Part shown: positions 1-63,680 of the stretch, one piece after another | How positions within the stretch are numbered: the first letter of the stretch is position 1 | How the letters are laid out: each line of letters begins with the position of its first letter | Source of the DNA: Phyto melanocephala | Taxonomy: Eukaryota > Arthropoda > Insecta > Diptera > Rhinophoridae | NCBI GenBank assembly: GCA_941918925.1 | Contig: OW799237.1 | Span: 53,556,997-53,620,996 of the forward strand | Reading direction: 5' to 3' | DNA: 64,000 nucleotides | Made by a program: the position numbers and the translations under genes | Notes under the pieces: generated by a model | The model's input: the letters and a program-made list of their open reading frames with translations, nothing else | What the model was told of the DNA's origin: nothing | Databases searched by the model: none

Positions 1-150
1 ATGGGATGTTTTTATATATGTATGTTTTGTATATGTATGTACGTATTTCATATGGGATGAATGGTGTCACAAACTACTGTTATTGCATGACTACACGTAG
101 TGAAGGGTATATAAGATTCGGCACGGCCGAATATAGCGCTCTTACTTGTT
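1..150 (+). mobile_element. Helitron (DINE-like) 3' end
   Basis: The sequence ends in a short perfect hairpin (ATTCGGC / GCCGAAT around a 3-base loop) followed by 'atagcgctcttacttgtt', preceded by 'agtgaagggtata'. The same terminus recurs at 16664 and 31132 and, inverted, at 15111, 31522, 36462 and 38830. A small 3' hairpin near the end is typical of Helitrons. The 5' part lies outside the window. Confidence 0.75.
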
Positions 151-1475
151 TTTTAAATAAAGATATCAATAGAGGTTAAGTGTTGCCAGTGTACGAAATT
201 TTTAACATAATTGGGATTGGAAATTTCGCAGATAACAATATAAATGCTAAAAATGTTTTTTGCTTTTAATTTAATTTATAATTATTATTTTATTTAATTT
301 ATTTTTATTTAGTTTTTTTTTTTTTTTTGATAACTGAGAAAATATTTTAGGTACTGATAAAATTAAATTTTTTTTAAATTCATATAAATCACATTAATTT
401 TAAAACTGATCTATATTAAAAAAATTATTAAGAAAGAAAACATTTTTAGATACAAGTATTACTTGTATATGATATTTCATTTCATTTAAGAAGAAACTTA
501 CATGCATATGTATTTTAAAGTATAATAAAGTAAATCATATGTGAATTTTTGAGAATGAATTGGAATTCAAAAACTGGGTATTAGGTATAAAAAAAAACTT
601 AGGTACAAACACAAAAACGTTGACACACCAACTTCAACTTCAAACGCGTATAATAAACTGAGCATACAAAAAAGTAATAAAACAATCGAGGATGCCACAA
701 AAAAATAAATTTCCTACCAAATTTGTTTAAACAATTTAAATAAATCTACCAAAACCTACCATTTTTCTTAAATTATTATTTCTAATTTAAAATAGTAAGT
801 TAAAAAATAAGTAAACTTTATATAATACAACTAGAAATAATAATATTCTTCCAAAACTTAAAGATATATACCAAGCCAACCAAGCCCCAAGTTATGCACA
901 AATAAAAAAAATCTATCGCACCAAAGTGGCATCCCTGCAAAAAATTCCATTCAATGCTAATTTCTTTTCTTGCTATCTACTCCCCCTATACATCTTTTGC
1001 TCTTTTTTTTTTGTTGAAAAGCCAAAGAAAAAAATTGTACATTATTTTTTTGAGTGAATGCATGATTTTAAAGTGGTGTATAGCTTTTTGTTTTTATTGC
1101 TGTGCTGTGTAGTGTACAGAAAAAATACGATCATATTTAAGTGAATGCAATTTTTTTTTATCATGTTTTTCTCAAGCACATTTACTTTCTTCATATGATG
1201 TGTGCTGTGTGATGAATTGTATCGCAGTATTAAGCTTAATTCACTGTTATTTAAAGCATTCATGAAGTAATGCAGGTCTTTAATACATACTTATATGGGT
1301 TAATCCTGTGTTACGATTATTCGCATGAAAATTTGTTTGTTAAGATTGACACAGCTGGCGTTCACATTAAAATATTTTCATGATATTTTTTGCAAAATGC
1401 AGTTTTTTGGGAGTACTTTAAAAGTTGTTTTAAACTTAAAGGTAAACTGTTTTTGAAAAAAAAGCTTAAAGTTCC
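151..1475. other. AT-rich repeat-derived sequence, no gene seen
   Basis: No coding signal is visible. The short open frame near 1042-1263 (minus) is low-complexity, stop-poor AT sequence. The whole stretch recurs at 16665-17987 as part of the duplication. Confidence 0.5.
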
Positions 1476-2730
1476 GTTACGGACGTTACAAAAAATGTAA
1501 GTCGATTTTGAGGCTCATGTGCATTTCCACATTTTTTAGCCAATTTTGCATAATAAACAAAAAAGTTCATATACAAAAAATTAAGTGGAATATATGACCA
1601 TAGCAATTCATCCAGCAAAGAAGGTTAAGTAGTCCCGTTAAACAAAAATCTTAATTTTTGTCTGTTACGGACGTTAAGTTACGGACGTTACACTTTTTCC
1701 ATTAAACCAAATTGTGTATATAAAAAACATTCATGTATTTTAAAATCTTTTTAACCTTGTAATTATTAATTTATAAGTTACAAATAATTATAGAATATTT
1801 AATTACTCTTATATTAGCTTATATTCATTTATTTATTTGTTTATTTAACTGTTTAACATTGTATCTTATGCCTAATAGACCCAGCTGTTCGAGCTACTTT
1901 TATAGTATTGTCATTGGAAAAGCCCGAAAAATAATGATATGATTTAAGAGCTGGAATATTTTTTACATTTATCCATGTTTTTGATGTTTCGTCAGATATA
2001 GTTTTGACATAATTTTTAGCAACGTAAATTAAGAAAACGCCATTTATATTTTTTTGCTACTTTGTGAAAATCTCGAGCGTTTTTTAAGATGAGATTTTTG
2101 GCTTTTACAAGTTGCCAAACTTTTCGCTTAACAACAGCACCAACACCGTCCACCGCTCCTTTTCCATGCGAAGTAGCAAAAAAATTCCTAATTTCGAACG
2201 GAAAATCCAGTACGTAAACATTACATGCGTCGGCGTACCGCCAAATATTTGAGGGGGGACATGGGGGTTGCTGTTTACAAAATGGTTATTAATTACTAAT
2301 TAATGATTTTTAGGAATTATTTTAGGTTTCATAAGAATTTGAATTTCATCTCAATTTAAGTTGCAGATTGTGAGATCGCATGTTATTTAAACACACTTTT
2401 TGTTACTTTGAGGTGAAGTTTTTCGGATTCTCGGCAACCTAGAGCAATTTTAAGCCCAAATTCAGATTCAGCAGATAAAAATTCATTATAAACACTTACT
2501 TCCACCTCATAGTATTAAAATAAAATATTTGGGTATTTTCATGCCGTTACGGACGTTACACACTTTGTCATATATATTTAAAAAAAAAAAGTGTAATAAA
2601 GGTATCTCTTTTTTTCCATTAGATTTAAGTGCATAAATAACTCTGTTTATAAAGCTAGTTTGGAAAACAAAATTATTAAAATTCATTCTGTTAAACTTAA
2701 AAAACCCTTTTATCCGTTACGGACGTTACA
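1476..2730 (+). repeat. Five dispersed direct copies of GTTACGGACGTTACA
   Basis: The 15-mer starts at 1476, 1678, 2546 and 2716. A variant ending in AAG starts at 1664 and abuts the 1678 copy, making a 14-bp tandem pair. All copies are in the same orientation and GC-richer than their surroundings, so chance is unlikely. They lie on both sides of a transposase-like pseudogene (1855-2255), which suggests transposase-binding sites or the ends of an unrecognised element. A related inverted half-match (GTAACGTCCGAAC) is at 21581-21593. Confidence 0.7.
1855..2255 (-). pseudogene. C-terminal fragment of a transposase-like protein with an HGKG motif
   Basis: Read on the minus strand, the frame from 2255 encodes a stretch with the motif F-F-A-T-S-H-G-K-G-A-V-D-G-V-G followed by V-V-K-R-K-V-W. 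A stop at 2016-2018 ends this frame. A one-base frameshift just before it lets the protein continue (A-K-N-Y-V-K-T-I-S-D...) to a stop at 1855. The SHGKGxxDGxGxxxKR signature occurs in a group of animal proteins of transposon character whose superfamily I cannot name with certainty. The N-terminal part is missing, and an AT-rich run precedes it. An almost identical copy is at 18367-18767. It is dead in both copies, sharing the same break, so it decayed before the duplication. Confidence 0.55.
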
Positions 2731-2773
2731 CACAGTGAATGGGTACACTGTTCAAATTGTTAATATACATATA

Positions 2774-3579
2774 CAGTATTTATCGCTTATATGCACGTCG
2801 GTTATAAGCATTTCTCGCTTTTATGCATCCAAGCCTGTGCAATTTCAGCTTGTAATTTAAAATAAACATAAAAATTTCGTCTATATTATATCGCTTTTAT
2901 GCATTTATCGCTTTTAAATTTTAATATAATTTGAATAAATTACAAAAGAAATTGTCTTTTATATGCATCATGAATAAATGCGTTCAAAAATGAGTGCTAA
3001 CAAACGAATATGCTTGTCTATAAGGCAAAAGCTTTCAATTATAAATGAAATTAAAGATTCTACTAAACAAGATATTCGTTGAAAGTATAGATGCTCAATC
3101 GACACCGTAAATCGTATTCTAAGAGACAGAATTTCTATTATTCAAAGAAGCAAAACATGCAATATATGTCGCAAAAAAAAAATCGAGTCGAAAATCAAAA
3201 AAAAAAAAGGATAAGGCATCGAAATGGTAGTGTCAAACAATATGCCAATGAAAAAGGCCAAACAATTTGACATTGCCCTGAACGAAAATTATTATCCTAC
3301 ACCTGGCGGGACTACTTTTCAAAGCATTGCCCTCATCAACACTCAATAGGAGTGGTTTTAAAATTTCTGGAATGACGTCATCAAAAGAACTTAAAACTTT
3401 ACTCCTTTCGTGCAATGTAACTGGTGACTATGCTTGCCATAGGTAAACCAAAACAGCCTCGATGTTTTAAAAATAAAAAAATTAAGTATTTTTCGCAAAA
3501 CAAGGCATGGATGACACAAGACGTTTGGACTGAAATAATGCTAGCTTTTGACGTTGACGTTCGAAATTTACCAGCATAT
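2774..3579 (+). mobile_element. pogo/Tigger-like element, 5' half only
   Basis: This copy has the 5' TIR (CAGTATTTATCGCTTATATGCA, preceded by TA) and a dead transposase from ATG 2990. The first 45 codons read as a pipsqueak/CENP-B type helix-turn-helix (S-I-R-Q-K-L-S-I-I-N-E-I-K), with an in-frame TGA after D-I-R. Further on, N-V-T-G-D and K-Q-G-M-D-D-T fragments match the region before the DDE core of pogo transposases, with frameshifts between them. The copy is cut at the duplication breakpoint; the complete version is at 19285-20990. Confidence 0.75.
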
Positions 3580-6761: not shown

Positions 6762-7345
6762 CAGGTCACATATATTGGTGACATAGCTGCCAGATTTGAC
6801 GATTTATCGTCATTTTGACGATTTTACGTGCTAAAATTAAATGTTGACGATTTGACGATTTATGTTATGTTTTTGACGATTTTCAAGAATTCAAGTTTGC
6901 AACATTTTTCATTACTTTTATATTAACCTTAAACTATTTAAAAATAATTTGTAACGGTTTTTTATGTTATTAATAATAGAACAGAGTGAAAGAGATAAAT
7001 CTATCATTATTTAATGTGTTTGTGTGGATAATATTTTCCACTTTGTACATTTTTATCACTTTATATGCCACATTTTATCAACAGATACCTACAACACGAA
7101 CAAATATAAATTTGGAAACGCGGTTAAAACAATTTAAATTTTTTAAGTAAATTTATTTAAAAATAAGTGACAAAATAATATACTTAAATACTTTAAAAAA
7201 ATGGTAAGTTCTTTTTAATTATACAAGGTGGCGCAAAAGAAATCCTCCTATCAGAAAATGCTACAAATTTTGCAATTGGCCCCTAATGTCAGTTCTGTTT
7301 TGACATTTGTGTAGTAAACACATGCAAAATACACGTTAATAAACA

Positions 7346-8431
7346 ATGTTACGCTACACTGCTCCAGAACGCGGAATATTGGTGACTATTTATTTGACCA
7401 ATAATCGGTCGGTGACTTTGGCACAACGTGAATTTCGTCGCAGATTTCCTAGCCGTCCAACGCCTACTGGTGAAACACTGCGACGTTTAGCCGCTCGCCT
7501 CGAAGAGACTGGCACAACACGAGATGCTGCCAGGAGTGGCAGACCCCGGAGTAGCCGTTCTGCAGAGAATATTGCTGCTGTAGCTGAGGATGTCATGGAA
7601 GCGCCGTCGACATCGACCAGACGACGTGCCACGCAAATGGCTATCAGTCGACGGTCTTTACAGCGAATTTTGGTACAAGATTTGAAGATGTTTCCGTACA
7701 AAGTCCAGACGGTGCATCAGCTGTTAGCTGCTGACCGCCAATCGCGCCTACCATACGCTCAAGCCATCCTGAATCACCACCAAGAGGAAGTTGATTTTTC
7801 ACCAAAAATAATCATGAGTGATGAGGCCCATTTCCATCTTAGCGGGTACGTAAATAAACAAAATTTACGCTTCTGGGGCACTGAAAATCCGCGTGTAACC
7901 CACGAAGAGCCATTACTCCCGCTCAAAGTTACTGTATGGTGTGATGTTTTCGCTGGAGGAGTCATCGGACCTTTTTTCTTCGAAGACGTCGCGGGCCAAA
8001 CGGTTACTGTGAATGGTGAGCGCTACAGAGCAATGATCAACGAGTTCTTTTTGCCGCAACTTGATGAATTGGGATTGGAAAACATGTGGTTCCAACAGGA
8101 CGGTGCAACAGCACACACTGCACGTGCCACAACCGATATGCTGAAGGATGCATTTCCCGGGCGCCTAATCTCCCGTTTTGGCGATTTGAACTGGCCAGCA
8201 AGATCGCCTGATTTGACCGCTCCAGACTTCTTTTTGTGGGGCTTTTTGAAGTCGCGGGTTTATGTCAACAAGCCTCAGACTCTTGCAGCTCTTAAAGACA
8301 ATATCCGTCAAGAATGTGAGGACCTATCGCCGGAAGTTTTGGCCAAAGTGATGGAAAATGTCATAAAAAGGGCTCAAATGACAATCAACTGTGGCGTCGG
8401 CCATTTACATGCCATCATATTCTCGACTTGA
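7346..8431 (+). CDS. Mariner transposase, DD41D type, apparently intact
   Basis: The 361-codon frame from ATG 7346 to TGA has no interruption. Residues 1-110 form the paired helix-turn-helix DNA-binding region; S-G-R-P-R-S lies between the helices. The catalytic triad is visible: D in M-S-D-E-A-H-F (residue about 158), D in Q-Q-D-G-A-T-A-H and D in L-T-A-P-D-F-F-L-W. There are 41 residues between the last two, which places it with DD41D (rosa/visitor-like) rather than classical DD34D mariners. Codon use is GC-richer than the flanks. Intact frame plus intact TIRs suggest a recent arrival; the 5.7-kb insertion downstream of the stop may now block mobility but not expression. Confidence 0.9.
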   Translation: MLRYTAPERGILVTIYLTNNRSVTLAQREFRRRFPSRPTPTGETLRRLAARLEETGTTRDAARSGRPRSSRSAENIAAVAEDVMEAPSTSTRRRATQMAISRRSLQRILVQDLKMFPYKVQTVHQLLAADRQSRLPYAQAILNHHQEEVDFSPKIIMSDEAHFHLSGYVNKQNLRFWGTENPRVTHEEPLLPLKVTVWCDVFAGGVIGPFFFEDVAGQTVTVNGERYRAMINEFFLPQLDELGLENMWFQQDGATAHTARATTDMLKDAFPGRLISRFGDLNWPARSPDLTAPDFFLWGFLKSRVYVNKPQTLAALKDNIRQECEDLSPEVLAKVMENVIKRAQMTINCGVGHLHAIIFST

Positions 8432-8820
8432 TGTAAAAAAAAAAAAAAAATACCAAATAAAAATAGGGTACGTTCGTAAATGCAGTTGTTGCGCATTACT
8501 TGCGCATTAGTAAAGTTGAATGTTCATAAAAGCATCACCTATAAAAAACTTGGCATCACTCTCACACGTCAAAAGTTTTTTTATGCAGTGATGCCACAGT
8601 ACTGCAGCAAATATTGGCAATTTTTGCATCAGTTAATTTTCTGATGCAATAACAAGTGTATGGTAATAAATTTTGACAATACAATTTTTAATTTCAATTG
8701 TGCGCCGAATATTTATTTAATAGAAAGTGGAAGAGTAAGTAGAAGAAAATTAAACATTTTGTTTATAATTCTAAAGAAATTGTTCTTAGTTTTGACGACT
8801 TCAGTTTTAATATTCAAAAA

Positions 8821-9405
8821 TTGTTAATCCGGACAAGATTAGATCTTGAGTCTGAGTTCAAGGAGGGAAAAAAGAAGAAATCGTTTTTGTGGGGAAAAGT
8901 TATAACTAAAATAAAAGAAATAAAACCAGATTTTGAATTGTCCAGGGAGCAAGCTAGCAGAAAATTTCTAAATCTTCAAACAACATACAGACGAATCAAA
9001 AATCGAAACAACTCGACAGGAAGGAATGCAACATCGTGGGAGTTTTATGATTTGTTCGATGAAGTTTATGGAACAAAACACTCCATCAATCCGCCCTCAA
9101 AAAATTTGCAGTCATCACTTAATACAGTTGAAGAAATTGTAGAAGAAGGACAAGATGTCAATGCAAATGACTCAATTTGCTCGTTGGACAACTTGAGTGC
9201 TGAACTATCGTATCAAAAGAAAAAGAAACCAAGAGTAGCTAATGAAAATGACACATTGGATTTTTTAAAAAAAGAGGCTGAAAGAGATGAAGAAAGACAT
9301 AAAGAAGTTATGGAACTCGAAAGGCGTAAAATTGAAATGGAGCAAGAAAGAATAAAAACAATGATTGATTTGAAAAATGTTCTGGAAAAGATGCTAGAGA
9401 AGTAA
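8821..9405 (+). CDS. Harbinger accessory protein, Myb/SANT-like DNA-binding domain
   Basis: The frame encodes about 195 residues. The N-terminal 85 form a trihelix Myb/SANT-like domain with spaced Trp residues (F-L-W-G-K-V, A-T-S-W-E-F-Y), followed by an acidic linker and a long charged C-terminal helix (R-D-E-E-R-H-K-E...) that is probably a coiled coil. In Harbinger elements this partner protein brings the transposase into the nucleus and to the TIRs. No ATG opens the frame; a donor-like gtaagt at 8732 and an acceptor-like ttcttag near 8787 suggest that the start lies in an upstream exon I cannot define. The body of the frame is intact. Confidence 0.75.
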   Translation: MLIRTRLDLESEFKEGKKKKSFLWGKVITKIKEIKPDFELSREQASRKFLNLQTTYRRIKNRNNSTGRNATSWEFYDLFDEVYGTKHSINPPSKNLQSSLNTVEEIVEEGQDVNANDSICSLDNLSAELSYQKKKKPRVANENDTLDFLKKEAERDEERHKEVMELERRKIEMEQERIKTMIDLKNVLEKMLEK

Positions 9406-10263: not shown

Positions 10264-10380
10264 CAGCCCAATTATGAATAGATATTCCCCGGAAGTTTTT
10301 TCCCTTTTCCCAATTGAATTTAAATAAAAAATGAGAGAAGCGAAAAAACTCCCGGGGAATTTGTATTCATAATTGGGCTG
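10264..10380. mobile_element. 117-bp palindromic MITE inside Harbinger
   Basis: Nearly the whole element is two inverted arms of about 45 bp, each starting CAGCCCAATTATGAATA and including a TTCCCCGG-type core, with a short AT-rich centre. The CAG terminus resembles hAT, but no clear target duplication is visible. It lies in the non-coding space between the two Harbinger genes. Confidence 0.7.
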
Positions 10381-11656
10381 AAAGTAAAAACATGTAACAT
10401 GAATTTACAAGATATTCTGGTAGTGTATACAATCATTCCTAAATACATGTACATATGGCAAAAAAGTATGTGAAATATTGAGGGAATAGGACTATTGCAA
10501 GAAAGTTTTATAAATTGAAATTGGATTCATTGAACACATTCGAAAAATAAAAATGGTTAATTATTATTTTTTAATTTTTTATATATTTTTATTTTATAAT
10601 TTTTTTAATAATACATTCTGTTGATAAAAACTTGAAAAAAAATACAAAGAATTAAGTAATTAATTAAAAAAAAAACAATTAAAAAAATGGCGAAAATATA
10701 ATGAATATAGCGAAAAATCGGATTTTTCAAATTTGAGGTTAAAGTATCTCAGAGAAGGAACAAGATATTACAAAGGTTAAACATTTATTTTAAAGGTAAT
10801 TGGACTTTAAGACTTTAAATTTTATAAATAAAGATTAGTTCGTTTTTTAAACTTCAAGCGAATAAATCGCGAATCGAGAAGTTCTGATTACAGATTCGGA
10901 TTCAGCGCAACTCAAAGAAAATTATACTCTGGTCCATGGGAGCTTGTTTAAATATTTTTTCAAAAAACTGTCATTTCTTTTTTATGAACAGAATAAAGAT
11001 GTTAAATTTCTTCTTATTGCAGCACCATCCATGTCACCTTCATTTCCTCCTATGTGATCTGAAACATTTATTTGAGCATCTTCAGCACTGAAGCTATTGC
11101 CATTATCCGTACCTCCTGTATTACATGCGGCGAGATTTTCTCTATTTATAATAAAATTGTGCAATATCGTACAGGCATAAATTACTTTAGAAGCTTTGTC
11201 TACTGATCCCAAATTTATATACTTTAAAATTTAAATTTTTTTTTTTAAATCCGTATAATTGAATATTTTTTCTTCACATGTCAAATGGCCATTATCCCGA
11301 TAAGGTGTCATTAAAAACTTTAGTAAAGGATAAGCCGAATCTCCAAGAATGAGTGCATTTTCAGCTACTTCCACTTGACTAGATATAATTGATTTGAAAA
11401 TTGGGCTTATTTTCCATACGTGTGCATCATGACAACTGCCTGGGCATCCAATAAACACATCTAAAAACCGAAACTTGCTATCACAAATAGCCTAAAAAAT
11501 TAAATTGAATTTTTATTTTGTCGAACTTTTCTGTTTAAACTATTATTTAAATTTTTAATCAGGCTTGAGTTCATATTAATATTCTTTATTTTTACAAAGA
11601 ATTTTTTTTTTAATTGTGATAAATGAAAGAATAAATCTTGAAAAATTATATTTTTA

Positions 11657-11725
11657 CCGACACTAGCCGAGTGGAATGCATTTTCGAAACCAGCTACGAT
11701 TTCATCATCAGCACTCTCTGATCGG
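11657..11725 (-). ncRNA. Hammerhead ribozyme, type I, inverted copy
   Basis: This is the exact reverse complement of the motif at 11973-12041, with core CTGATGA, stem II, GAAA and a palindromic stem III. Predicted self-cleavage of a minus-strand transcript is between 11674 and 11673. Confidence 0.75.
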
Positions 11726-11972
11726 TGGTTACATGTTGGTTGTAAATATCATCTATTTAACTCACGGGACTTATGTTAATTGAATTCGGTAACTAATTTT
11801 TAGTTTTTCCTATTTCATATATTTTTACCACAATGAGTTAGATTGAAATTTTAACCAAACAGCAACCCTTTTTACTTTTTGTTTGTTGTTTGATAAAAAA
11901 ATTAGTTACCGAATTCAATTAACATAAGTCCCGTAAGTTAAATATATGATATTTACAACCAACATGTAACCA

Positions 11973-12041
11973 CCGATCAGAGAGTGCTGATGATGAAATC
12001 GTAGCTGGTTTCGAAAATGCATTCCACTCGGCTAGTGTCGG
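11973..12041 (+). ncRNA. Hammerhead ribozyme, type I, unit 1
   Basis: Core CTGATGA is at 11987-11993 and GAAA at 12013-12016. Stem II pairs GAAATC with GGTTTC around loop GTAGCT. Stem III is the minimal self-complementary AATGCATT (12016-12023). Stem I pairs GAGTG (11982-11986) with CACTC (12025-12029), then after an internal loop CCGA with TCGG. The cleavage triplet is TTC, with cleavage between 12024 and 12025. One departure from consensus is an extra T between CTGATGA and stem II, which could lower activity. Palindromic short stem III is known from retrozyme and Penelope-type hammerheads, which act as dimers. Confidence 0.78.
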
Positions 12042-12548
12042 TAAAAATATAATTTTTCAAGATTTATTCTTTCATTTATCACAATTAAAAAAAATTCTTT
12101 GTAAAAATAAAGAATATTAATATGAACTCAAGCCTGATTAAAAATTTAAATAATAGTTTAAACAGAAAAGTTCGACAAAATAAAAATTCAATTTATATAA
12201 ACATAGGGCACGGTGCAAAATAATCATTCATCCACTGTTAGTCAGTCAACATTTCGTTGTATACTGACTTCACAGAAAATAAAACAAATGATTATAAACA
12301 TTGATTGTTAAAAACAATTATCTGTTCTTATCGCTACCTAACTGGTGGCTAGAGCAGGACAAAAATAGTGATAAATGAAAGATAATAACAAACAAAAAGT
12401 AAAAAGGGTTCCTGTTTGGTTAAAATTTCAATCTAACTCATTGTGGTAAAAATATATGAAATAGGAAAAACTAAAAATTAGTTACCGAATTCAATTAACA
12501 TAAGTCCCGTGAGTTAAATAGATGATTTTTACAACCAACATGTAACCA

Positions 12549-12617
12549 CCGATCAGAGAGTGCTGATGATGAAATCGTAGCTGGTTTCGAAAATGCATTC
12601 CACTCGGCTAGTGTCGG
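12549..12617 (+). ncRNA. Hammerhead ribozyme, type I, unit 2
   Basis: Identical to the unit 1 motif. Predicted cleavage between 12600 and 12601 would release a 576-nt monomer together with the unit 1 site. Confidence 0.78.
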
Positions 12618-13124
12618 TAAAAATATAATTTTTCAAGATTTATTCTTTCATTTATCACAATTAAAAAAAATTCTTTGTAAAAATAAAGAATATTAATATG
12701 AACTCAAGCCTGATTAAAAATTTAAATAATAGTTTAAACAGAAAAGTTCGACAAAATAAAAATTCAATTTATATAAACATAGGGCACGGTGCAAAAAAAT
12801 CATTCATCCACTGTTAGTCAGTCAACATTTCGTTGTATACTGACTTCACAGAAAATAAAACAAATGATTATAAACATTGATTGTTAAAAACAATTATCTG
12901 TTCTTATCGCTACCTAACTGGTGGCTAGAGCAGGACAAAAATAGTGATAAATGAAAGATAATAACAAACAAAAAGTAAAAAGGGTTGCTGTTTGGTTAAA
13001 ATTTCAATCTAACTCATTGTGGTAAAAATATATGAAATAGGAAAAACTAAAAATTAGTTATCGAATTCAATTAACATAAGTCCCGTGAGTTAAATAGATG
13101 ATATTTACAACCAACATGTAACCA

Positions 13125-13193
13125 CCGATCAGAGAGTGCTGATGATGAAATCGTAGCTGGTTTCGAAAATGCATTCCACTCGGCTAGTGTCGG
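13125..13193 (+). ncRNA. Hammerhead ribozyme, type I, unit 3
   Basis: Identical to the unit 1 motif, in the partial third unit. Predicted cleavage is between 13176 and 13177. The repeat unit breaks off about 55 bp downstream. Confidence 0.76.
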
Positions 13194-15089
13194 TAAAAAT
13201 ATAATTTGTCAAGATTTATTCTTTTATTTATCACAATTAAAAAAAATTAAGTTTTTAAAATTATACGTACAATAAATTCAGTGCATACGTACTTGCATTA
13301 TTACTGTATAATTGCCTTTGCGGTTATAGTAGCTGGTTGCATCCTGTCTAGGCATGGATATGTTAAAATGTGTCCCATCAACACAACCGATTACAAATGG
13401 AAAAGGGTTGTGTCTGCTGTTTTGAAAATGTTCCATTATGATTTTTTGATGAGAAGCAGAAGGCCAGATTATTTCATTTTTAAGCATACAAATAAGCTCT
13501 ACAGTTTTATAAAAAATGTTATGAACAGTCCCCTTTGCTATATTAAACCGATCACTTAGCTCTCTAAAGGTCTGGTCGCTATTGCAAAGCTTCCATAGTG
13601 TTACATAAAGACATTTCTCTAGTGAATATCCAAGACGGCCATGAATTTTTCTTGTCCAGAATGGTTTCAATGAATCTTGCAATATCTATATATAAAAGAG
13701 GAATGTTAGCAAATAATTTTAAGGACCCATTTAAAAATTTTACCACAAAAGTAGAGTGCAGCATCCGAAAATGACTATGAAATACATCACGTTGGTATTT
13801 TTTAATTATTTTAAAATAATTATTAATTTTGGGAACTTGTCTTCTCTTTTCTTTCAACTTTTTTTGTAACACAAGAAATCTTTGCATTTTTCTTTTTTGT
13901 TGCCGTTTCTTGTAATTCATAAGAAAACTGTCACTTTTTGGTTCAATATTTCCAATAAAATTTGTTAACGCTATTGTTGATAACATTTTTATTATTGTTT
14001 TAGGTTCACTTGTGAAAATTTTGAAGTTGTTTAGCGTGTTCAAAAATGCAAACTTTGCACAGCTGTTGTGTAGTAAAAAAGCATCAGCATCATAACTGCA
14101 ACAGATGATCACGCATCAGCAACAAAATTTGGCATCACTGCAGCAGTGATGCGCAGTTTTGATGCATTTACGAACGTACCCATACTCCACAAGAAGAATC
14201 AAAGTTTTTCATTTTTTTTTAAATTACAGCCAAAAAACATCGGAAGGTTATTTTTGCGCCACCTTGTACATTAAAACTTTAAAAATCAAACATTAAATTT
14301 TCAATAGAAAACCAAGATGATGAAAATTCTAGCAGCTCTTCCTCTGTAATTAGAAATTTCAACCATTTTTTATACAAAACTTTGTAGTAGCTGAAATGAA
14401 ATTTTAATGGTGTTTTTCACAGGTAACCAACAAGAAGAGGAAAATTAAGGAAGACTGGTTTGCAGATTCAGAAATAAGTTTATGGGATGAAAAGCGAAAC
14501 GATGTAGTTTATTTTGGCGTTGTGGTTGTCTTACGCTTGTCTTAAGCTACCTTAATCGGTAGAAACTTTAGAAAGAAATGATTATAATTATTTGTCAAAT
14601 ATTTAGTCCAAAAAGATGCAGCTAACTTATTATTTTTTGTATTTATATGTATGTATATTAATATTTATTTTTCGAAATTAATTCTTAATTGTATTATATT
14701 TATTGTCATGTTCTTCACATAAAAGGGTCTAATAAAATCATTGATCTCTCTAGATTTAAAAAGTTTGTTATGTTATGCATTTAATAAAAAATTTTTTGTT
14801 TTAAAAAATGCGTTTCTTTATTTTGACGTTATTATGACAATTTGCGTAAACTATTTGACGACTTTTTCCCCCAAATTAGACGATTTTACCCCTATTTTAT
14901 CTGGCAGCTATGTTTGGTGAATGTGAATACTGTGTGTTGCACTCTTTGAAACACATCGTACACTTCTATATTTATAATTCTTTGCATTCAGCCACATGTT
15001 GTTTGTTAAGTGAATCATTAGCACAGTAACTTAAAACAGCAATGAATACACACACTACACAGTACGCATTCACTGTGTTGTTCCATTTT

Positions 15090-16664
15090 TATACCCTTCA
15101 CACAGTGAAAAACAAGTAACAGTGCTATATTCGGCCATGCCGAATCTTATATACCCTTCACAACGTGTAGTCATGCAATAACAATTGTTTGTATCACCAT
15201 TCATCTCATATAAAATATGTACATATGTATATACTGGTTAGACTAAATGTGGCATCGAATCCCAGCTGAGCCAAAAAAATTTTATTTTATTTTATTTAAG
15301 ATATTATTTATATTTTATTATTTTTTTTTATATTTTTTTTAAATTTTTTTAAAAAATTTTTTTACAAAAATTATTAAAAATTTTTTAAAATTTTTAAAAA
15401 ATTTTTTAAAATTTTTTTTTTAAATTTTTTAAAATTTTTTTTTTAAATTTTTTTTTAATTTTTTTTTTGTAATTTTTTTATTATTTTTTTTTTATTTTTA
15501 ATATATTTATTTTTTTTGTAATTTTTTTTTTTTGGCATGTTTTTTGCATGTATAATTTTGTAATTTTGATGTAATTGTGTAAAAAAACGAGGTGGTCGTG
15601 GTTTTTTGCTCATATCTCAGAAAGTTATGGGGCGATTGTGCTGAATTTCAATAGCGATTCATTCCTGGATATTTCCAAGAGATTGATACCATATACAGAT
15701 CTGAGGAACATATAGTTGCTTCTAAAAGTTGATTTAAACCAACACACGGACAGACGGTCAGGGCTTAATCGACTCCTCTATTCATAAGCTTTCAGAAAAT
15801 ATATACTTTATGGGGTCGGAAATGAAAATTGTAGAAATTACAAACGGAATGACAAACCTATATATACCCTTGTGCACCACAGGTGAAGGGTATAAAAAGG
15901 GTATATATAGGTTTGTCATTCCGTGTGAAATTTCTACAATTTTCATTTCCGACCCCATAAAGTATATATTTTCTGAAAGCTTATGAATAGGGGAGTCTAT
16001 TAAGCTCTGTCAGTCTGTCCGTCTGTCCCTCTGACCGTCTGTCCGTGTGTTTGTTGAAATCAACTTTTTGAAGCCCCCCGATATCGCTTGGACCCGGGTG
16101 AGGTATTAAAATATCAGAAATATTCGGGAGTAGAACGGTATTGAAAATCAGAAACATCGGTACATAAACAACTGAGATATGAGCAAAACCCCACGACCAC
16201 CTCGATTTTTTCACAAAACAACATTATAACAACAACATACATACATACAAACGTGTATACTGGTTATAGAAAACGTGGCATCGAATCCCAGCTGAGCCAA
16301 AAAAATTTTTTTTTTAATTTTTTTTTTTTTTTATTTAATATATTAGTTATATTTTTATTATTTTTTTTAAATTTTTTTTTTATTTTTCTTTTATATATAT
16401 TATATATATAATAATTTTTTTTTAAAATTTTTTTTTTAAATTTTTTTTTAAATTTTTTTTTTTTTGTTTTTTTTTTGTTTTTTTAACATACATACGTGAA
16501 TTTATAATTTTACAATGGGATGTTTTTATATATGTATGTTTTGTATATGTATGTACGTATTTCATATGGGATGAATGGTGTCACAAACTACTGTTATTGC
16601 ATGACTACACGTAGTGAAGGGTATATAAGATTCGGCACGGCCGAATATAGCGCTCTTACTTGTT
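15090..16664 (+). mobile_element. Helitron (DINE-like), outer, split by another Helitron
   Basis: The 5' end TATACCCTTCACACAGTGAA is at 15090, is interrupted after 15110, and resumes at 15895 with 'aagggtatatatagg'. It then shows the 'tttccgaccccataaagtat' and 'GTCTGTCC' track known from DINE-1 type Helitrons, a long A/T-tract region, and the hairpin 3' end at 16664. The uninterrupted 5' end at 31811 confirms the split. It has no coding capacity and is non-autonomous. Confidence 0.8.
15111..15894 (-). mobile_element. Helitron (DINE-like), inner, complete
   Basis: It reads on the minus strand from 'tataccctt' (15894) to the hairpin and 'ttacttgtt' (15111). It belongs to a different subfamily from its host: the internal half matches 36462-37139 rather than the outer element. 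No target duplication is visible, as expected for Helitrons. Confidence 0.8.
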
Positions 16665-17987
16665 TTTTAAATAAAGATATCAATAGAGGTTAAGTGTTGC
16701 CAGTGTACGAAATTTTTAACATAATTGGGATTGGAAATTTCGCAGATAACAATATAAATGCTAAAAATGTTTTTTGCTTTTAATTTAATTTATAATTATT
16801 ATTTTATTTAATTTATTTTTATTTAGTTTTTTTTTTTTTTTTGATAACTGAGAAAATATTTTAGGTACTGATAAAATTAAATTTTTTTTAAATTCATATA
16901 AATCACATTAATTTTAAAACTGATCTATATTAAAAAAATTATTAAGAAAGAAAACATTTTTAGATACAAGTATTACTTGTATATGATATTTCATTTCATT
17001 TAAGAAGAAACTTACATGCATATGTATTTTAAAGTATAATAAAGTAAATCATATGTGAATTTTTGAGAATGAATTGGAATTCAAAAACTGGGTATTAGGT
17101 ATAAAAAAAAACTTAGGTACAAACACAAAAACGTTGACACACCAACTTCAACTTCAAACGCGTATAATAAACTGAGCATACAAAATGTAATAAAACAATC
17201 GAGGATGCCACAAAAAAATAAATTTCCTACCAAATTTGTTTAAACAATTTAAATAAATCTACCAAAACCTACCATTTTTCTTAAATTATTATTTCTAATT
17301 TAAAATAGTAAGTTAAAAAATAAGTAAACTTTATATAATACAACTAGAAATAATAATATTCTTCCAAAACTTAAAGATATATACCAAGCCAACCAAGCCC
17401 CAAGTTATGCACAAATAAAAAAAATCTATCGCACCAAAGTGGCATCCCTGCAAAAAATTCCATTCAATGCTAATTTCTTTTCTTGCTATCTACTCCCCCT
17501 ATACATCTTTTGCTCTTTTTTTTTTGTTGAAAAGCCAAAGAAAAAAATTGTACATTATTTTTTTGAGTGAATGCATGATTTTAAAGTGGTGTATAGCTTT
17601 TTGTTTTTATTGCTGTGCTGTGTAGTGTACAGAAAAAATACGATCATATTTAAGTGAATGCAATTTTTTTTTATCATGTTTTTCTCAAGCACATTTACTT
17701 TCTTCATATGATGTGTGCTGTGTGATGAATTGTATCGCAGTATTAAGCTTAATTCACTGTTATTTAAAGCATTCATGAAGTAATGCAGGTCTTTAATACA
17801 TACTTATATGGGTTAATCCTGTGTTACGATTATTCGCATGCAAATTTGTTTGTTAAGATTGACACAGCTGGCGTTCACATTAAAATATTTTCATGATATT
17901 TTTTGCAAAATGCAGTTTTTGGGAGTACTTTAAAAGTTGTTTTAAACTTAAAGGTAAACTGTTTTTGAAAAAAAAGCTTAAAGTTCC

Positions 17988-19241
17988 GTTACGGACGTTA
18001 CAAAAAATGTAAGTCGATTTTGAGGCTCATGTGCATTTCCACATTTTTTAGCCAATTTTGCATAATAAACAAAAAAGTTCATATACAAAAAATTAAGTGG
18101 AATATATGATCATAGCAATTCATCCAGCAAAGAAGGTTAAGTAGTCCCGTTAAACAAAAATCTTAATTTTTGTCTGTTACGGACGTTAAGTTACGGACGT
18201 TACACTTTTTCCATTAAACCAAATTGTGTATATAAAAAACATTCATGTATTTTAAAATCTTTTTAACCTTGTAATTATTAATTTATAAGTTACAAATAAT
18301 TATAGAATATTTAATTACTCTTATATTAGCTTATATTCATTTATTTATTTGTTTATTTAACTGTTTAACATTGTATCTTATGCCTAATAGACCCAGCTGT
18401 TCGAGCTACTTTTATAGTATTGTCATTGGAAAAGCCCGAAAAATAATGATATGATTTAAGAGCTGGAATATTTTTTACATTTATCCATGTTTTTGATGTT
18501 TCGTCAGATATAGTTTTGACATAATTTTTAGCAACGTAAATTAAGAAAACGCCATTTATATTTTTTTGCTACTTTGTGAAAATCTCGAGCGTTTTTTAAG
18601 ATGAGATTTTTGGCTTTTACAAGTTGCCAAACTTTTCGCTTAACAACAGCACCAACACCGTCCACCGCTCCTTTTCCATGCGAAGTAGCAAAAAAATTCC
18701 TAATTTCGAACGGAAAATCCAGTACGTAAACATTACATGCGTCGGCGTACCGCCAAATATTTGAGGGGGGACATGGGGGTTGCTGTTTACAAAATGGTTA
18801 TTAATTACTAATTAATGATTTTTAGGAATTATTTTAGGTTTCATAAGAATTTGAATTTCATCTCAATTTAAGTTGCAGATTGTGAGATCGCATGTTATTT
18901 AAACACACTTTTTGTTACTTTGAGGTGAAGTTTTTCGGATTCTCGGCAACCTAGAGCAATTTTAAGCCCAAATTCAGATTCAGCAGATAAAAATTCATTA
19001 TAAACACTTACTTCCACCTCATAGTATTAAAATAAAATATTTGGGTATTTTCATGCCGTTACGGACGTTACACACTTTGTCATATATATTTAAAAAAAAA
19101 AGTGTAATAAAGGTATCTCTTTTTTTCCATTAGATTTAAGTGCATAAATAACTCTGTTTATAAAGCTAGTTTGGAAAACAAAATTATTAAAATTCATTCT
19201 GTTAAACTTAAAAAACCCTTTTATCCGTTACGGACGTTACA
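17988..19241 (+). repeat. GTTACGGACGTTACA motif cluster, second copy
   Basis: The same five motifs with the same spacing as at 1476-2730, shifted by about 16511 bp. The last one is at 19227-19241, 43 bp before the pogo TIR. Confidence 0.7.
18367..18767 (-). pseudogene. HGKG-motif transposase-like fragment, second copy
   Basis: Same sequence, same frameshift and same length as the fragment at 1855-2255; the first frame ends at 18528. The shared break shows that the gene was already dead before duplication. Confidence 0.55.
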
Positions 19242-19284
19242 CACAGTGAATGGGTACACTGTTCAAATTGTTAATATACATATA

Positions 19285-20990
19285 CAGTATTTATCGCTTA
19301 TATGCACGTCGGTTATAAGCATTTCTCGCTTTTATGCATCCAAGCCTGTGCAATTTCAGCTTGTAATTTAAAATAAACATAAAAATTTCGTCTATATTAT
19401 ATCGCTTTTATGCATTTATCGCTTTTAAATTTTAATATAATTTGAATAAATTACAAAAGAAATTGTCTTTTATATGCATCATGAATAAATGCGTTCAAAA
19501 ATGAGTGCTAACAAACGAATATGCTTGTCTATAAGGCAAAAGCTTTCAATTATAAATGAAATTAAAGATTCTACTAAACAAGATATTCATTGAAAGTATA
19601 GATGCTCAATCGACACCGTAAATCGTATTCTAAGAGACAGAATTTCTATTATTCAAAGAAGCAAAACATGCAATATATGTCGCAAAAAAAAAATCGAGTC
19701 GAAAATCAAAAAAAAAAAGGATAAGGCATCGAAATGGTAGTGTCAAACAATATGCCAATGAAAAAGGCCAAACAATTTGACATTGCCCTGAACGAAAATT
19801 ATTATCCTACACCTGGCGGGACTACTTTTCAAAGCATTGCCCTCATCAACACTCAATAGGAGTGGTTTTAAAATTTCTGGAATGACGTCATCAAAAGAAC
19901 TTAAAACTTTACTCCTTTCGTGCAATGTAACTGGTGACTATGCTTGCCATAGGTAAACCAAAACAGCCTCGATGTTTTAAAAATAAAAAAATTAAGTATT
20001 TTTCGCAAAACAAGGCATGGATGACACAAGACGTTTGGACTGAAATAATGCTAGCTTTTGACGTTGACGTTCGAAATTTACCAGCATATATTACCTAAAT
20101 TTTCGCAATGGAAGATCGCGAAGATCAAATAATTATAACTGCTGACTCTGGTTTAGAATTTGGAGCTGAATTTGAAAATTTCGTAACTCACGACGAAAAT
20201 TTACCTTGTCATGCACCACCTAACGAAGAGGAAATCGTTTTTGAGCTTCAATCAAGCTAACGAGGATGATGACAATGAGTATGTACCAATTCCATCTGTA
20301 AGTAATGCAGTGGAATATTTAAATAGTTTACGGTGTTTTCTTCAAGCAAGAAATGAATTGATTGATGAATTGGAAAAAATTTAACAATTTTTTTTTGAGA
20401 GCTGCTGCAAAAATGTACAAAAGGAAATAACAGATTTTTTTAAAAATTAGTATGTATTAGACTAAGTACTTAAATTTACCTCAGCAATTCCAAATTCAAG
20501 TTTCCATTGCTTGTGAATTTATTATCAATGATAAGGCCGTGACAAAATCACTTCTCACTTCGCAAGTATTGGAACTGCTGGGGCAATTCTAGTAAGCAAT
20601 GAATTTCTAGTTTTGTTATATTATCAACCTAGTTGACTGATCTCAGTAAAATGATACAGTACAAACTTCTAAATGTACAATAATATTATTTATTTAACTT
20701 AATATTTTTAGTTTTTTTTTGTAAAATTGATTTTTTTAATAAAAACTAATACATACATATATATGTATGTATACATATGTATAAAAATTTGGATAGATTT
20801 TGTCTACTTTTTTTATATGCACCCTCTATGCAAATATCGGAGTTTTTATATATGCACTGCTTATGCATATTAACGAGTTTTTTTTATAAGCACCGTATAT
20901 GCATATAAACGTGTTTTTATATTTGCATTTCGTGCTTATATGCACAGAAAGCTGTGCATTTTTCGAAATGCATATAACCGATAAATACTG
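19285..20990 (+). mobile_element. pogo/Tigger-like element, complete ends, dead transposase
   Basis: The TIRs are CAGTATTTATCGCTTATATGCA at 19285 and its inverse (one mismatch) ending at 20990, flanked by TA on both sides. Several degenerate 'tatatgca' subterminal motifs lie at 20815-20965. The transposase starts at 19501 (M-S-A-N-K-R-I-C-L-S-I-R-Q-K) with the HTH region, has an in-frame TGA after about 27 codons and further frameshifts. An acidic C-terminal stretch (20108-20260, M-E-D-R-E-D-Q-I-I-I-T) is still readable. The catalytic core is largely deleted. At 1.7 kb it is a non-autonomous relic. Confidence 0.8.
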
Positions 20991-24143: not shown

Positions 24144-24578
24144 GCGTGCGTGAACAAAACATACCGGGAATATACTGTTTTTAGCATACTTTTTTGAACA
24201 GTTGTAAAAAACCGTACATACGGAAAATAGTACCGAACAGGTGGAAAAAAGTACAAAAGTACTTATTTTTGCAACCATTATAACTTATTTTTTGAATTTT
24301 ATTTCAATTTCATTTCGTTCCTAACATACTTTAATAATAAATTACTATATAAATTTAAATAAAATAAAGATTTTATTTTTCGGTTGCCCTTATAAGCATT
24401 TAGTGTTAACCAACGGTTAGCCAAATGCTAAAGGGATTAGAAAAATAAAATAAATTAAAAATGAAAAATTGTTGGTTGGGTTTTTGAAAAAGTTTTTTGT
24501 TTTATTTTTAAATTCTCATTTTGTTAATGAGAATTTAAAAATATAACTTATAAAAATTTTAAACTTTTTTAAGAATTT

Positions 24579-24643
24579 GGGTAAAGGTTTACTGATGATC
24601 TGGCATAAGCACCAGTGAAATGCATATAAACCAGCTTAAACCC
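24579..24643 (+). ncRNA. Hammerhead ribozyme, type I, second family
   Basis: Core CTGATGA is at 24592-24598 and GAAA at 24617-24620. Stem II pairs CTGG with CCAG around CATAAGCA. Stem III is the palindromic ATGCAT (24620-24625). Stem I pairs GGTTTA (24586-24591) with TAAACC (24627-24632), then GGGT (24579) with ACCC (24643) after an internal loop. The triplet is ATA, with cleavage between 24626 and 24627. As in the 576-bp family, a T follows CTGATGA; here it faces another T, so the usual G-C closing pair of stem II is absent. It is single copy in the window, about 38 bp before the 169-bp satellite. Confidence 0.7.
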
Positions 24644-24680
24644 AACAACCAAATAAATATATATAAATTTAGTTTTTTGA

Positions 24681-37489: not shown

Positions 37490-37750
37490 GGGGTTCAATT
37501 AACGTTCTGTGAATCTGTGAATTGAAATGTTTTTGCGTGTTATATCATATGGTGCCACCATACCTCTTGCTGTACAAAAACTTTTCATATCACATAATGA
37601 ATGAGGATTGAGCACCAGGGTATCAATTCTCGTTCTGTGAAACTGTGAAATGAAAAAGTTTTTGTATAGCAAAGGGTATGGTGGCACCATATGATATTAC
37701 ACACAAAAACTTTTCATTTCATAGTTTCATAGAACGAGAATTGATACCCA
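37490..37750. repeat. Two adjacent ~130-bp palindromic elements in mirror orientation
   Basis: The right unit (37617-37749) is a near-perfect palindrome: arms GGGTATCAATTCTCGTTCT around a centre ATGGTGGCACCAT. The left unit (37490-37617) is a diverged relative whose centre is inverted relative to the right one, so the pair also forms one larger inverted repeat of about 258 bp. Non-coding; presumably MITEs. Confidence 0.8.
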
Positions 37751-45933: not shown

Positions 45934-45942
45934 AAATTTAGT

Positions 45943-49914: not shown

Positions 49915-50105
49915 ACTGTGCCCGTGTCAAGAAAATAAAATTAAATTGTCTTTCGCAATGTGACGTCGCTTTTAAAAAAAATTAACAAAATGTGTGTGCT
50001 CGGAAAATTGAGTAAAAAAAGAAATTTTAGTTACAATGGAAAAATATATGTTATATATATAAGTATGTATATGTATATCTATATATATATATATATATAT
50101 ATATC

Positions 50106-63186: not shown

Positions 63187-63329
63187 ATCACACGATTGCT
63201 GTTATGCACCAATTTTCACAATTTTTTGTATACTAATCGTGTGATTGCACAATGAATTGGTGCATGTGACAATCATTGAATTGTAACATATACATATATG
63301 TATAGGAATTTTAAATTACATAGTAGTAT

Positions 63330-63392
63330 ACCGATTAAGAGTGCTAATGATGGAATCGTAGCTGGTTTTACTCGGGTAATGTCGGAAAAAGT
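63330..63392 (+). other. Decayed hammerhead-type repeat fragment
   Basis: It reads 'cgattaagagtgctaatgatggaatcgtagctgg', clearly homologous to the 576-bp repeat motif, but CTGATGA is now CTAATGA and the GAAA plus stem III are deleted. GAGTG and ACTC of stem I persist. It cannot be catalytic. It is continued by 'gaacttaagcc', matching 'gaactcaagcc' of the repeat. Confidence 0.65.
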
Positions 63393-63471
63393 TTTAAAGA
63401 ATATTCCTAAAAATGATTGCAATTTAATTTAATTTGAATTACAAAATTAAATAATAGAATAAATGAACTTA

Positions 63472-63680
63472 AGCCATCGGGGTGCCCCGATGGACTACTC
63501 AGCAGTGTGCTGTTCTGCTAGTTTGGGGGTTGCGGGTTCGATTCCCGCCGGAGACTCTGGACTTGTCTGCTTCCTTTCTATTCTATTCTTACTTTTCTAT
63601 TCAGGTATCACAAAGGGATCAATATAATGGACCCAAGTGAGCTGCACAGCAGCTGCCTGTTCTACCTAACCTAACCTAAG
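63472..63680 (+). mobile_element. tRNA-derived SINE
   Basis: A good B box (GGTTCGATTCC in 'gcgggttcgattcccgcc', with its own stem) and a weaker A-box-like region about 45 bp upstream form a tRNA-like head. A pyrimidine-rich middle and a body ending in CCTAACCTAACCTAA follow. The tail is three CCTAA units. It sits at 'aagcc', within the decayed 576-bp-family fragment. Confidence 0.65.

What the first reader, a model, noticed from the sequence alone, without database searches (positions are those of the whole stretch)
11502..13249. 576-bp tandem repeats that encode type I hammerhead ribozymes, including an inverted copy
Four identical 69-nt motifs have CTGATGA, a 6-bp stem II, GAAA, a palindromic stem III (AATGCATT), a TTC cleavage triplet and a stem I with two paired segments and an internal loop. 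All parts are in the correct order and spacing. Direct copies are exactly 576 bp apart, so transcripts should be cut into 576-nt monomers. The palindromic stem III is the design known from retrozymes, newt satellite 2 and Penelope-like elements. The inverted unit would give a large hairpin transcript with opposing ribozymes. An extra T after CTGATGA is the one deviation.
Basis: partly seen in the sequence, partly recalled or inferred. Interest (0 to 1): 0.92.

Follow-up and report, generated by a model that had tools for sequence, protein, structure and literature searches.

The report
Ribozyme repeats spread like Penelope elements
Short non-coding repeats with self-cutting RNA motifs in an insect-like genome sit in the chromosomes in back-to-back arrays whose ends, target duplications and RNA signals match those of Penelope retrotransposons in the same genome, which suggests that Penelope proteins copy and insert them.

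Summary
Four identical 69-nt type I hammerhead motifs (three direct, 576 bp apart, one inverted) sit in a ~1.75-kb insert in an intron of a PIF/Harbinger-type transposase gene, in an insect-like 740-Mb genome. The unit is repetitive (40 loci scored of 1,714 candidates), and the inverted unit is the rule. All 30 two-armed loci read are head-to-head; 27 have one outer end near unit 131 and the other near 169, none two alike. Exact 10-17-nt target repeats flank 23 of 25 tested. Arms of a locus share private variants (35 of 69; 0 of 2000 permutations), as if copied from one RNA; one locus alternates ABABABA, as from a dimeric circle. A second, unrelated 360-nt hammerhead family in the window behaves alike at the three two-armed loci seen. 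Penelope-like elements (PLEs) here show the same order and, where read, the same ends, and an RNA module in common, with one covarying helix pair. Best reading: metazoan retrozymes inserted by PLE machinery through two-ended, probably rolling-circle, target-primed reverse transcription. PLE mobilisation was proposed in print; the architecture and shared module did not appear in my searches. No RNA was tested.

The parts
11494..11503 (.). left target site duplication AAAAAATTAA
   Evidence: Longest exact match joining the two insert edges; its last 3 nt also match the unit, so partly microhomology.
13241..13250 (.). right target site duplication AAAAAATTAA
   Evidence: its first 8 nt also match the unit. 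The 3' end here (unit 72) lacks the usual short end at ~131, probably a later microhomology deletion (inference).
11501..11890 (-). inverted arm: partial retrozyme unit, unit positions 171 back to 360; outer end is the 'long' end
   Evidence: blastn to the tandem unit
11891..11896 (.). filler at the head-to-head junction
   Evidence: overlap -6
11897..12024 (+). direct arm, 5' partial unit (unit 449-576)
12025..12600 (+). direct arm, full 576-nt unit (cleavage site to cleavage site)
12601..13176 (+). direct arm, second full 576-nt unit
13177..13248 (+). direct arm, 3' partial unit (unit 1-72)
11973..12041 (+). type I hammerhead ribozyme copy 1, predicted cleavage 12024/12025
12549..12617 (+). 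type I hammerhead ribozyme copy 2, predicted cleavage 12600/12601
13125..13193 (+). type I hammerhead ribozyme copy 3, predicted cleavage 13176/13177
11657..11725 (-). type I hammerhead ribozyme in the inverted arm, predicted cleavage 11674/11673
12124..12212 (+). PLE-like RNA module: 5' arm GAACT (12124-12128), AAGCC, 3' arm AGTTC (12169-12173), GGGCAC (12207-12212); the two RT start sites used at other loci fall at about 12154-12156 (short) and 12191-12195 (long)
12700..12788 (+). same module in the second direct unit
11523..11572 (-). same helix in the inverted arm (the arm ends before the GGGCAC part)
   Evidence: one search gives the 5' arm; the 3' arm position is counted from it
13278..13685 (-). 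reading frame of the host gene (HTH_Tnp_4 / DDE_Tnp_4, both just below Pfam's cut-off; PIF/Harbinger-type transposase) whose intron holds the insert; the next exon begins at about 11491 on the - strand
24352..24661 (+). one-armed insertion of a second, unrelated retrozyme family (360-nt monomer) with 12-nt repeat TATATAAATTTA at its edges
24579..24643 (+). hammerhead of the second family: 1-bp stem III with UGCA loop, predicted cleavage after 24626
63302..63475 (+). decayed copy of a third, related family (fam1b): core G5 to A, GAAA and stem III deleted, stems I and II still pairable by eye

Best explanation
The insert is a metazoan-type retrozyme: a non-coding 576-nt unit with a type I hammerhead. 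SHOWN from sequence, at the loci read: two-armed insertions are head-to-head arrays. Their two outer ends lie at two internal unit positions about 38 nt apart, nearly always one of each kind per insertion, and 10-17-nt target repeats flank them. The two arms of a locus share private variants far above chance. PLEs in the same genome have the same order and, at the few ends read, the same kind of ends, and share with the unit an RNA module around the two start sites. INFERRED: transcripts are cut by the hammerhead into monomers (or dimers when one ribozyme is weak) and closed into circles. A PLE protein binds the module (GAxCU..AAGCC..AGx'UC..GGGCAC), cuts both target strands with a 10-17-nt stagger, and primes reverse transcription from each 3' end, one at the short start site and one at the long. 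Each cDNA runs round the circle, often more than once, and the two are joined, mostly by short microhomology. The retrozyme would thus be to PLEs what a SINE is to a LINE.
For: Orientation: 23 of 23 mixed loci in the raw listing are (-)(+), none (+)(-). Ends: of 30 two-armed loci with both ends read, 27 have one short (~131) and one long (~169) end, 0 have two alike, 3 are exceptions. Exact repeats of 10-17 nt at the edges of 23 of 25 two-armed loci tested. Same RNA: the two arms of a locus share 35 of 69 minority alleles over 21 loci; permuted mean 0.11, 0 of 2000 as high. Arms over 576 nt: 28 of 40 arms of 20 loci. Dimer-period array ABABABA at L040. PLEs: of 31 neighbouring RT-hit pairs 17 are (-)(+), 0 are (+)(-). 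One PLE insertion (L080/L079) has a short and a long end and an 11-nt repeat, read by eye. Shared module: in 15 of 21 PLE 5' regions with a minimal hammerhead (5 lineages; 9 of the 15 are near-copies of one), in fam1, and in 0 of 20,000 random sequences. The third helix pair is C-G, U-A or A-U by lineage. Second family: L053 42/80, L055 85/48, L056 45/80. In print: a purified PLE cleaves and extends both strands and starts internally at two sites that bound the 'tail' (PMC11167929, main text); a 31-bp tail on one inverted pLTR (PMC3846280, passages).
Against: No RNA was examined: self-cleavage, circles and PLE binding are inferred. Alone, the 69-mer folds better in a non-hammerhead way, and Rfam models do not match. 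In vitro, hammerhead mutants of a PLE RNA insert as well as wild type (PMC11167929), so ribozyme cleavage may not be needed for insertion. In 6 of the 21 loci (L037, L040, L043, L046, L050, W) the arms share none of their few minority alleles. The module pattern was written after seeing both PLE and fam1; only one helix pair varies in both letters; 6 of 21 PLE regions fail the pattern; fam2 lacks it. Pfam finds RVT_1 but no GIY-YIG domain at E up to 1 in two PLE proteins. PF01541 at E up to 0.001 hits one gene only, by its sequence the host's SLX1 (recalled). L041, L043 and the window's own right end break the end rule. One-armed loci mostly lack target repeats (1 of 6). No chance control was run for the target repeats, and the flanks are AT-rich. 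The 40 loci were the best-scoring of 1,714 candidates, so they are biased to close copies.
Confidence: 0.84

Rival explanations
1. A LINE with an AP endonuclease inserted the arrays by target-primed reverse transcription with twin priming, which also gives 5' inversions and target duplications.
For: Twin priming is known for L1 (seen in the listing; details recalled). A LINE with RVT_1 and a weak endonuclease match lies in the window at 40284-42284. The window's own right end lies in an A-tract.
Against: Two-armed insertions have 3' ends outward on both sides at two fixed unit positions, one of each kind in 27 of 30; recalled twin-primed L1 inversions start at variable internal sites. PLEs share the ends and the module; I did not look for the module in LINEs of the genome.
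Confidence: 0.06
2. Satellite DNA: the arrays arose by genomic duplication, unequal crossing-over and inversion, and the hammerhead is a passenger.
For: Large arrays exist (second family, C3:45126637-45159666). Unequal exchange could give the ABABABA order of L040.
Against: Dispersed loci with target repeats and two fixed outer ends; order always (-)(+) in 23 of 23; hammerhead sites less variable than the rest.
Confidence: 0.04
3. One strand is made by PLE reverse transcription and the inverted arm by self-priming of a hairpin, as proposed in print for PLEs on an antisense template (PMC3846280).
For: Head-to-head palindromic junctions in rotifer PLEs (PMC3846280, passages).
Against: Self-priming copies one arm from the other, so both outer ends should be equal; they differ in 27 of 30. 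Junctions join unrelated unit positions, with microhomology in 15 of 21.
Confidence: 0.04
4. Same two-ended PLE mechanism, but the template is a linear multimeric transcript of a genomic array, not a closed circle (a variant of the best explanation, so its odds overlap with it).
For: PMC11167929 favours unprocessed multimeric RNA for a PLE and saw no reads at the hammerhead site. Arrays of up to 8 units in one arm.
Against: Units within an arm are nearly identical (pooled 0.0034 against 0.0075 between loci); strictly alternating L040 fits a dimer circle. Neither excludes a homogeneous array as the source.
Confidence: 0.3

Closest known systems
Metazoan non-LTR retrozymes (Cervera and de la Pena 2020, PMC7229834; parts 1-4 of 6 read)
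   Same: Type I hammerhead with short stem III, tandem non-coding units, low GC, no LTR, target duplications longer than 4 bp; insects named among hosts.
   Different: 576-nt unit, outside the 150-450 bp given there (the 360-nt second family is inside); head-to-head two-armed arrays with fixed ends; a module shared with PLEs. That paper proposes PLEs as a 'strong candidate' mobiliser.
Penelope-like elements, e.g. Poseidon of Anolis (PMC11167929, main text) and Penelope of Adineta vaga (PMC3846280, passages)
   Same: Hammerhead upstream of two internal RT start sites, 30-40-nt 'tail', both target strands cut and extended, head-to-head order, target duplications.
   Different: The retrozyme has no ORF, and its hammerhead has a stem III and a two-part stem I rather than the minimal form. 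The Poseidon paper saw no strand difference in start site; here nearly each insertion uses one of each. Duplications here are 10-17 nt, against 8-10 bp in the rotifer passages.
Newt satellite 2 and axolotl retrozymes (described in PMC7229834)
   Same: Stem III of 1-2 bp with a palindromic loop; may need dimers to cleave.
   Different: ~330-350-bp repeats; two-ended arrays not described in the parts read; no sequence comparison was made here.
CChMVd plus-strand hammerhead (PMC3705267, passages)
   Same: One unpaired nucleotide after conserved A9, so the extra T has precedent.
   Different: A instead of U; a plant viroid.
SINE-LINE pairs sharing a 3' tail (recalled)
   Same: Non-autonomous partner keeps the template signal of its helper.
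   Different: Here the signal is internal, flanks two start sites and is used at both ends.

Membership tests
Metazoan non-LTR retrozyme | canonical type I hammerhead with stem I internal loop facing loop II | tested here: met
   All core residues and stems in order, one extra T after A9. Tertiary contacts were not modelled.
Metazoan non-LTR retrozyme | non-coding tandem repeats from dimers to multimers, low GC, no LTR/PBS/PPT | tested here: met
   Tandem units; GC 28-29% in 10-14 kb; no ORF of 120 aa or more inside the insert. PBS and PPT were not searched separately.
Metazoan non-LTR retrozyme | target duplications longer than 4 bp | tested here: met
   10-17 nt at 23 of 25 two-armed loci tested, 1 of 6 one-armed.
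Metazoan non-LTR retrozyme | monomer of about 150-450 bp (range given in PMC7229834, not strictly defining) | tested here: not met
   576 nt; the second family has 360 nt.
Metazoan non-LTR retrozyme | RNA self-cleaves and accumulates as circles | not testable with these tools
   No RNA data held; the circular fold is more stable than 60 shuffles (z = -4.9).
Penelope-like element (autonomous) | ORF with telomerase-like RT and GIY-YIG endonuclease | tested here: not met
   No ORF of 120 aa or more in the insert. It works like a PLE but is not one.
Insertion by PLE machinery | internal RT start at two sites 30-40 nt apart ('tail') | tested here: met
   Ends at ~131 and ~169; 27 of 30 two-armed loci have one of each.
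Insertion by PLE machinery | extension on both target strands, giving head-to-head order | tested here: met
   (-)(+) in 23 of 23 mixed loci; co-resident PLEs -+ 17, +- 0 of 31 pairs.
Insertion by PLE machinery | template signal shared with a co-resident PLE | tested here: met
   Helix/AAGCC/GGGCAC module in fam1 and 15 of 21 PLE regions, by a pattern written after seeing both; not in the second family.
Insertion by PLE machinery | helper PLE protein carries the GIY-YIG endonuclease | tested here: inconclusive
   RVT_1 found, no GIY-YIG match by Pfam at E up to 1 in two proteins; a YIG-like stretch is visible by eye.
Plant LTR retrozyme | type III hammerhead in LTRs, 4-bp target duplications | tested here: not met
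   Type I motif, longer duplications; no LTR-like arrangement seen.

The most novel reading that the evidence does not exclude
PLEs and metazoan retrozymes share one replication route: hammerhead-made circular RNA (monomer, or dimer when one ribozyme is weak) is bound through a conserved helix module and copied from both 3' ends of a staggered target break at once. One strand starts at the proximal and the other at the distal site, so each insertion is a pair of divergent rolling-circle cDNAs. Retrozymes would be the SINE-like parasites, and perhaps reduced descendants, of PLEs. This would explain both the PLE 'tail' and its inverted pLTRs.
Probability: 0.5. Interest if true: 0.9.

Novelty: new variant of a known kind. 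Interest (0 to 1): 0.83.

Why it matters
How animal retrozymes move is open; PLEs were named as a strong candidate (PMC7229834). Here dozens of insertions in one chromosome-scale genome (40 loci scored of 1,714 candidates) record the mechanism: fixed start sites, two-ended priming, shared template. They link retrozymes to co-resident PLEs by an RNA module with a covarying pair. The same data suggest an answer to two PLE puzzles, the one-sided tail and the inverted pLTR, without self-priming. It is testable with one purified PLE protein and one 576-nt RNA.

Tried and rejected
Rfam gave no hammerhead match; the microRNA-model hits only reflect the large inverted repeat. Exact and degenerate hammerhead patterns found nothing in IMG/VR or GTDB contigs, as expected for an insect. 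GIY-YIG (PF01541) found one host gene only, so PLEs were sought by RT instead. Before the genome answered I favoured LINE twin priming for the window's locus; the genome-wide ends overturned it. Conservation figures (sites) were inflated by two large deletions counted as variants; one search corrects them, and there the block 97-160 is not more conserved than the rest (11 of 64 sites, p = 0.86). Automatic end mapping misplaced some ends in repeated AT words (L036, L038, L049, L021); blast ends and the printed flanks were used for these. The script paired the wrong arms in fam1; the helix homologous to the PLE one is unit 100-104/145-149. The search for target repeats at L056 used a wrong left edge and says nothing. 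An empty copy of the host intron elsewhere in the genome and more copies of fam1b were asked for and never answered.

Rows left out of counts: one search used the 150 rows shown of 180 matches. Of 37 PLE regions fetched plus 6 pieces of earlier loci, the 21 that match a strict minimal-hammerhead pattern were counted; the other 22 were not, some of them (such as L090, L113, L115, L118, L120) with the helix, others without a PLE 5' region. Target repeats seen by eye at L068/69, L070/71 and L074/75 are not in the 23 of 25. L002 and C5:58122349 were set aside as duplicates, the second by its listing only.
Full report
1. The observation. The four 69-nt motifs are real and identical (+ 11973, 12549, 13125; - 11657-11725), 576 nt apart on the direct strand; the two full units differ at 4 of 576 positions. 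The motif reads stem I (CCGA and GAGTG against CACTC and TCGG, with an internal loop), CTGATGA, an extra T, stem II GAAATC/GGTTTC, GAAA, AATGCATT, TTC and stem I. A descriptor for this architecture hits the window 5 times: these four and 24592. It hits none of 60 Markov sequences; a slightly different descriptor hits 3 times in 400. Rfam has no hammerhead match. The 69-mer alone folds better in another way (-16.6 against -7.0 kcal/mol). As a circle the 576-nt unit is more stable than 60 dinucleotide shuffles (z = -4.9). An unpaired nucleotide after A9 is known from the CChMVd hammerhead (PMC3705267, passages).

2. The insert. Retrozyme sequence spans 11501-13248, between two copies of AAAAAATTAA (11494-11503, 13241-13250), in an intron, a few bases before the 3' splice site, of a PIF/Harbinger-type transposase gene on the minus strand (HTH_Tnp_4, DDE_Tnp_4, just below Pfam's cut-offs). 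It holds a 390-nt inverted partial unit and 2.35 direct units. The resolvable differences between copies each belong to one copy only; one site is covered by only two copies and cannot be assigned.

3. The genome. The window lies in a 739,753,867-base genome in 9 contigs. The named hits in the listing for a neighbouring transposon protein are arthropod: moths, a spider, beetles, bees (best 120 of 3,618 shown), so I call the host insect-like without naming it. The unit gave 180 matches; 40 candidates were scored of 1,714, so counts are lower bounds. I parsed the 150 rows shown into 40 loci. Twenty-three had both orientations, and all 23 were minus-then-plus. I read 20 loci whole with 1.5-kb flanks, and the rest but one in whole, in part or at their ends.

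4. The ends. After mapping the 40 loci are 30 two-armed, 8 one-armed and two set aside as duplicates: L002, a copy of the window's locus, and C5:58122349, which was not fetched and is judged by its listing only. In 27 of the 30, one outer end is at unit ~126-138 and the other at ~164-173 once microhomology with the target is set aside. In none are both of one kind. The exceptions are L041, L043 and the window's own right end, which stops at unit 72, probably through a later deletion between AAAAAATT repeats (inference). One-armed loci end at the long site in 7 of 8. The longest exact repeat joining the edges is 10-17 nt at 23 of 25 two-armed loci tested and at 1 of 6 one-armed loci; no chance control was run. 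Fixed ends, one of each, speak against self-priming, which would give equal ends, and do not fit random inversion.

5. One template. The two arms of a locus share 35 of 69 minority alleles over 21 loci; shuffled arms share 11% on average, and none of 2000 shuffles reaches the observed 51%. In 6 of the 21 (L037, L040, L043, L046, L050, W) none of one to three such alleles is shared. Pooled distances are 0.0034 within an arm (111 pairs), 0.0048 between arms (97) and 0.0075 between loci (4,900). 28 of 40 arms exceed one unit, the longest being 4,621 nt. L040 alternates strictly, A-B-A-B-A-B-A, at its linked markers (an A-tract at 18, a 2-nt deletion at 531-532) and is otherwise nearly invariant. 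That fits a dimeric circle. The deletion lies in the stem I loop of one ribozyme, which would explain failure to cut at that site (inference). Unequal exchange is not excluded for this one locus. Arms are joined with 1-8 nt of microhomology in 15 of 21, filler in 5, blunt in 1.

6. Conservation. Over 143 units or part units at 26 loci the hammerhead has substitutions at 5 of 70 sites, the rest of the unit (outside 97-160) at 82 of 442 (p = 0.016). A diverged relative beside a PLE (L080:317-392) aligns well to the unit only over the hammerhead and a few bases more (90% over 77 nt). The decayed copy at 63302 belongs to that relative's family (80% over 127 columns).

7. A second family. The candidate at 24592 is a copy of an unrelated 360-nt unit: 83 matches, 40 of 194 candidates scored. 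I held six of its loci, three of them two-armed (L053, L055, L056): all three are head-to-head with one end at 42-48 and the other at 80-85, and L053 and L055 have edge repeats of 13 and 15 nt. L058 ends at 80; the end of L057 is unclear. The window copy is one-armed, ends at the short site and has a 12-nt repeat.

8. Penelope-like elements. A typed RT query found PLEs in plenty: 123 of 1,133 candidates scored, all with E below 1e-51, many with open frames of 800-873 aa. Neighbouring hits under 10 kb apart are -+ 17, ++ 10, -- 4 and +- 0. Two of their proteins match RVT_1; Pfam does not call the endonuclease, although a YIG-like stretch is visible by eye. Their 5' regions carry minimal hammerheads, followed by GACCU(U), AAGC, a loop of about 33-44 nt, (A)AGGUC and an RGCAC box. 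Read by eye, insertions end either inside that loop (L078, L080) or some 15-20 nt after the 3' arm (L077, L079). L080 and L079, 54 unread bases apart, look like the two sides of one insertion with an 11-nt repeat, TTCCTAAAATG, inside a fam1b retrozyme (inferred from the flanks). Fam1 has the same module at unit 100-104/145-149 with the box at 183, and its two ends at the matching places. The full pattern occurs in 15 of 21 PLE regions with a minimal hammerhead (9 of the 15 near-copies of one lineage, five lineages in all), in fam1, and in 0 of 20,000 random sequences; six PLE regions fail it, among them L103, L104 and L114 with GGC for AGC. The pattern was written after seeing both sides. In ten representatives that I chose, the third helix pair is C-G in seven PLEs, U-A in one and A-U in the two retrozymes; L077 has one mismatch at pair 1.

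9. Literature. The main text of PMC11167929 shows that a purified PLE cuts and extends both strands, starts internally, and that the tail is the stretch between its two start sites; insertion there did not need hammerhead activity. PMC3846280 (passages) describes head-to-head pLTRs with a tail on one of them and proposes self-priming. PMC7229834 (parts 1-4 of 6) describes metazoan retrozymes and names PLEs as a strong candidate mobiliser. PMC7761336, PMC8490949 and PMC6155905 were seen in passages only. In the listings I saw no title or abstract that reports two-ended retrozyme arrays or a shared PLE-retrozyme module; most of those papers I did not read, some listings were cut, and subscription papers are not held.

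10. Verdict. A new retrozyme family whose insertions carry the PLE signature, with a shared RNA module that points to PLEs as helper. Sequence architecture is shown; cleavage, circles and protein binding are inferred.

Noticed in passing
24684-28183: Array of about 20.7 copies of a 169-bp satellite directly beside the second-family retrozyme insertion.
   Followed up: no
1-3579 and 16515-20089; G000:C5:53552048-53553784: Segmental duplication (99.8%); a near-identical copy of the retrozyme locus lies about 16.5 kb upstream, outside the window.
   Followed up: partly
63476-63680: tRNA-derived SINE-like sequence (GGTTCGATTCCCGCC, by eye) directly behind the decayed hammerhead copy; ARAGORN calls no tRNA.
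   Followed up: no
G000:C3:45126637-45159666: About 33 kb holding many second-family units, several at ~354-bp spacing: perhaps a retrozyme turned into a satellite.
   Followed up: no
G000:C2:122512198-122522547 and C3:6155078-6166550: PLEs with long open frames in (-)(-)(+)(+) arrays of about 3-kb units, suggesting that PLEs also copy round a circle.
   Followed up: partly
7343-9405, 13278-14115: DUF4817 transposon protein at 7343; a Myb/SANT frame at 8743 probably belongs to the Harbinger element that hosts the insert.
   Followed up: no
39562-43095, 45193-49926, 54262-55347: LINE, Gypsy-like and Tc/mariner-like elements.
   Followed up: no
10264-10380 and 37491-37749: Large imperfect palindromes, MITE-like.
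   Followed up: no
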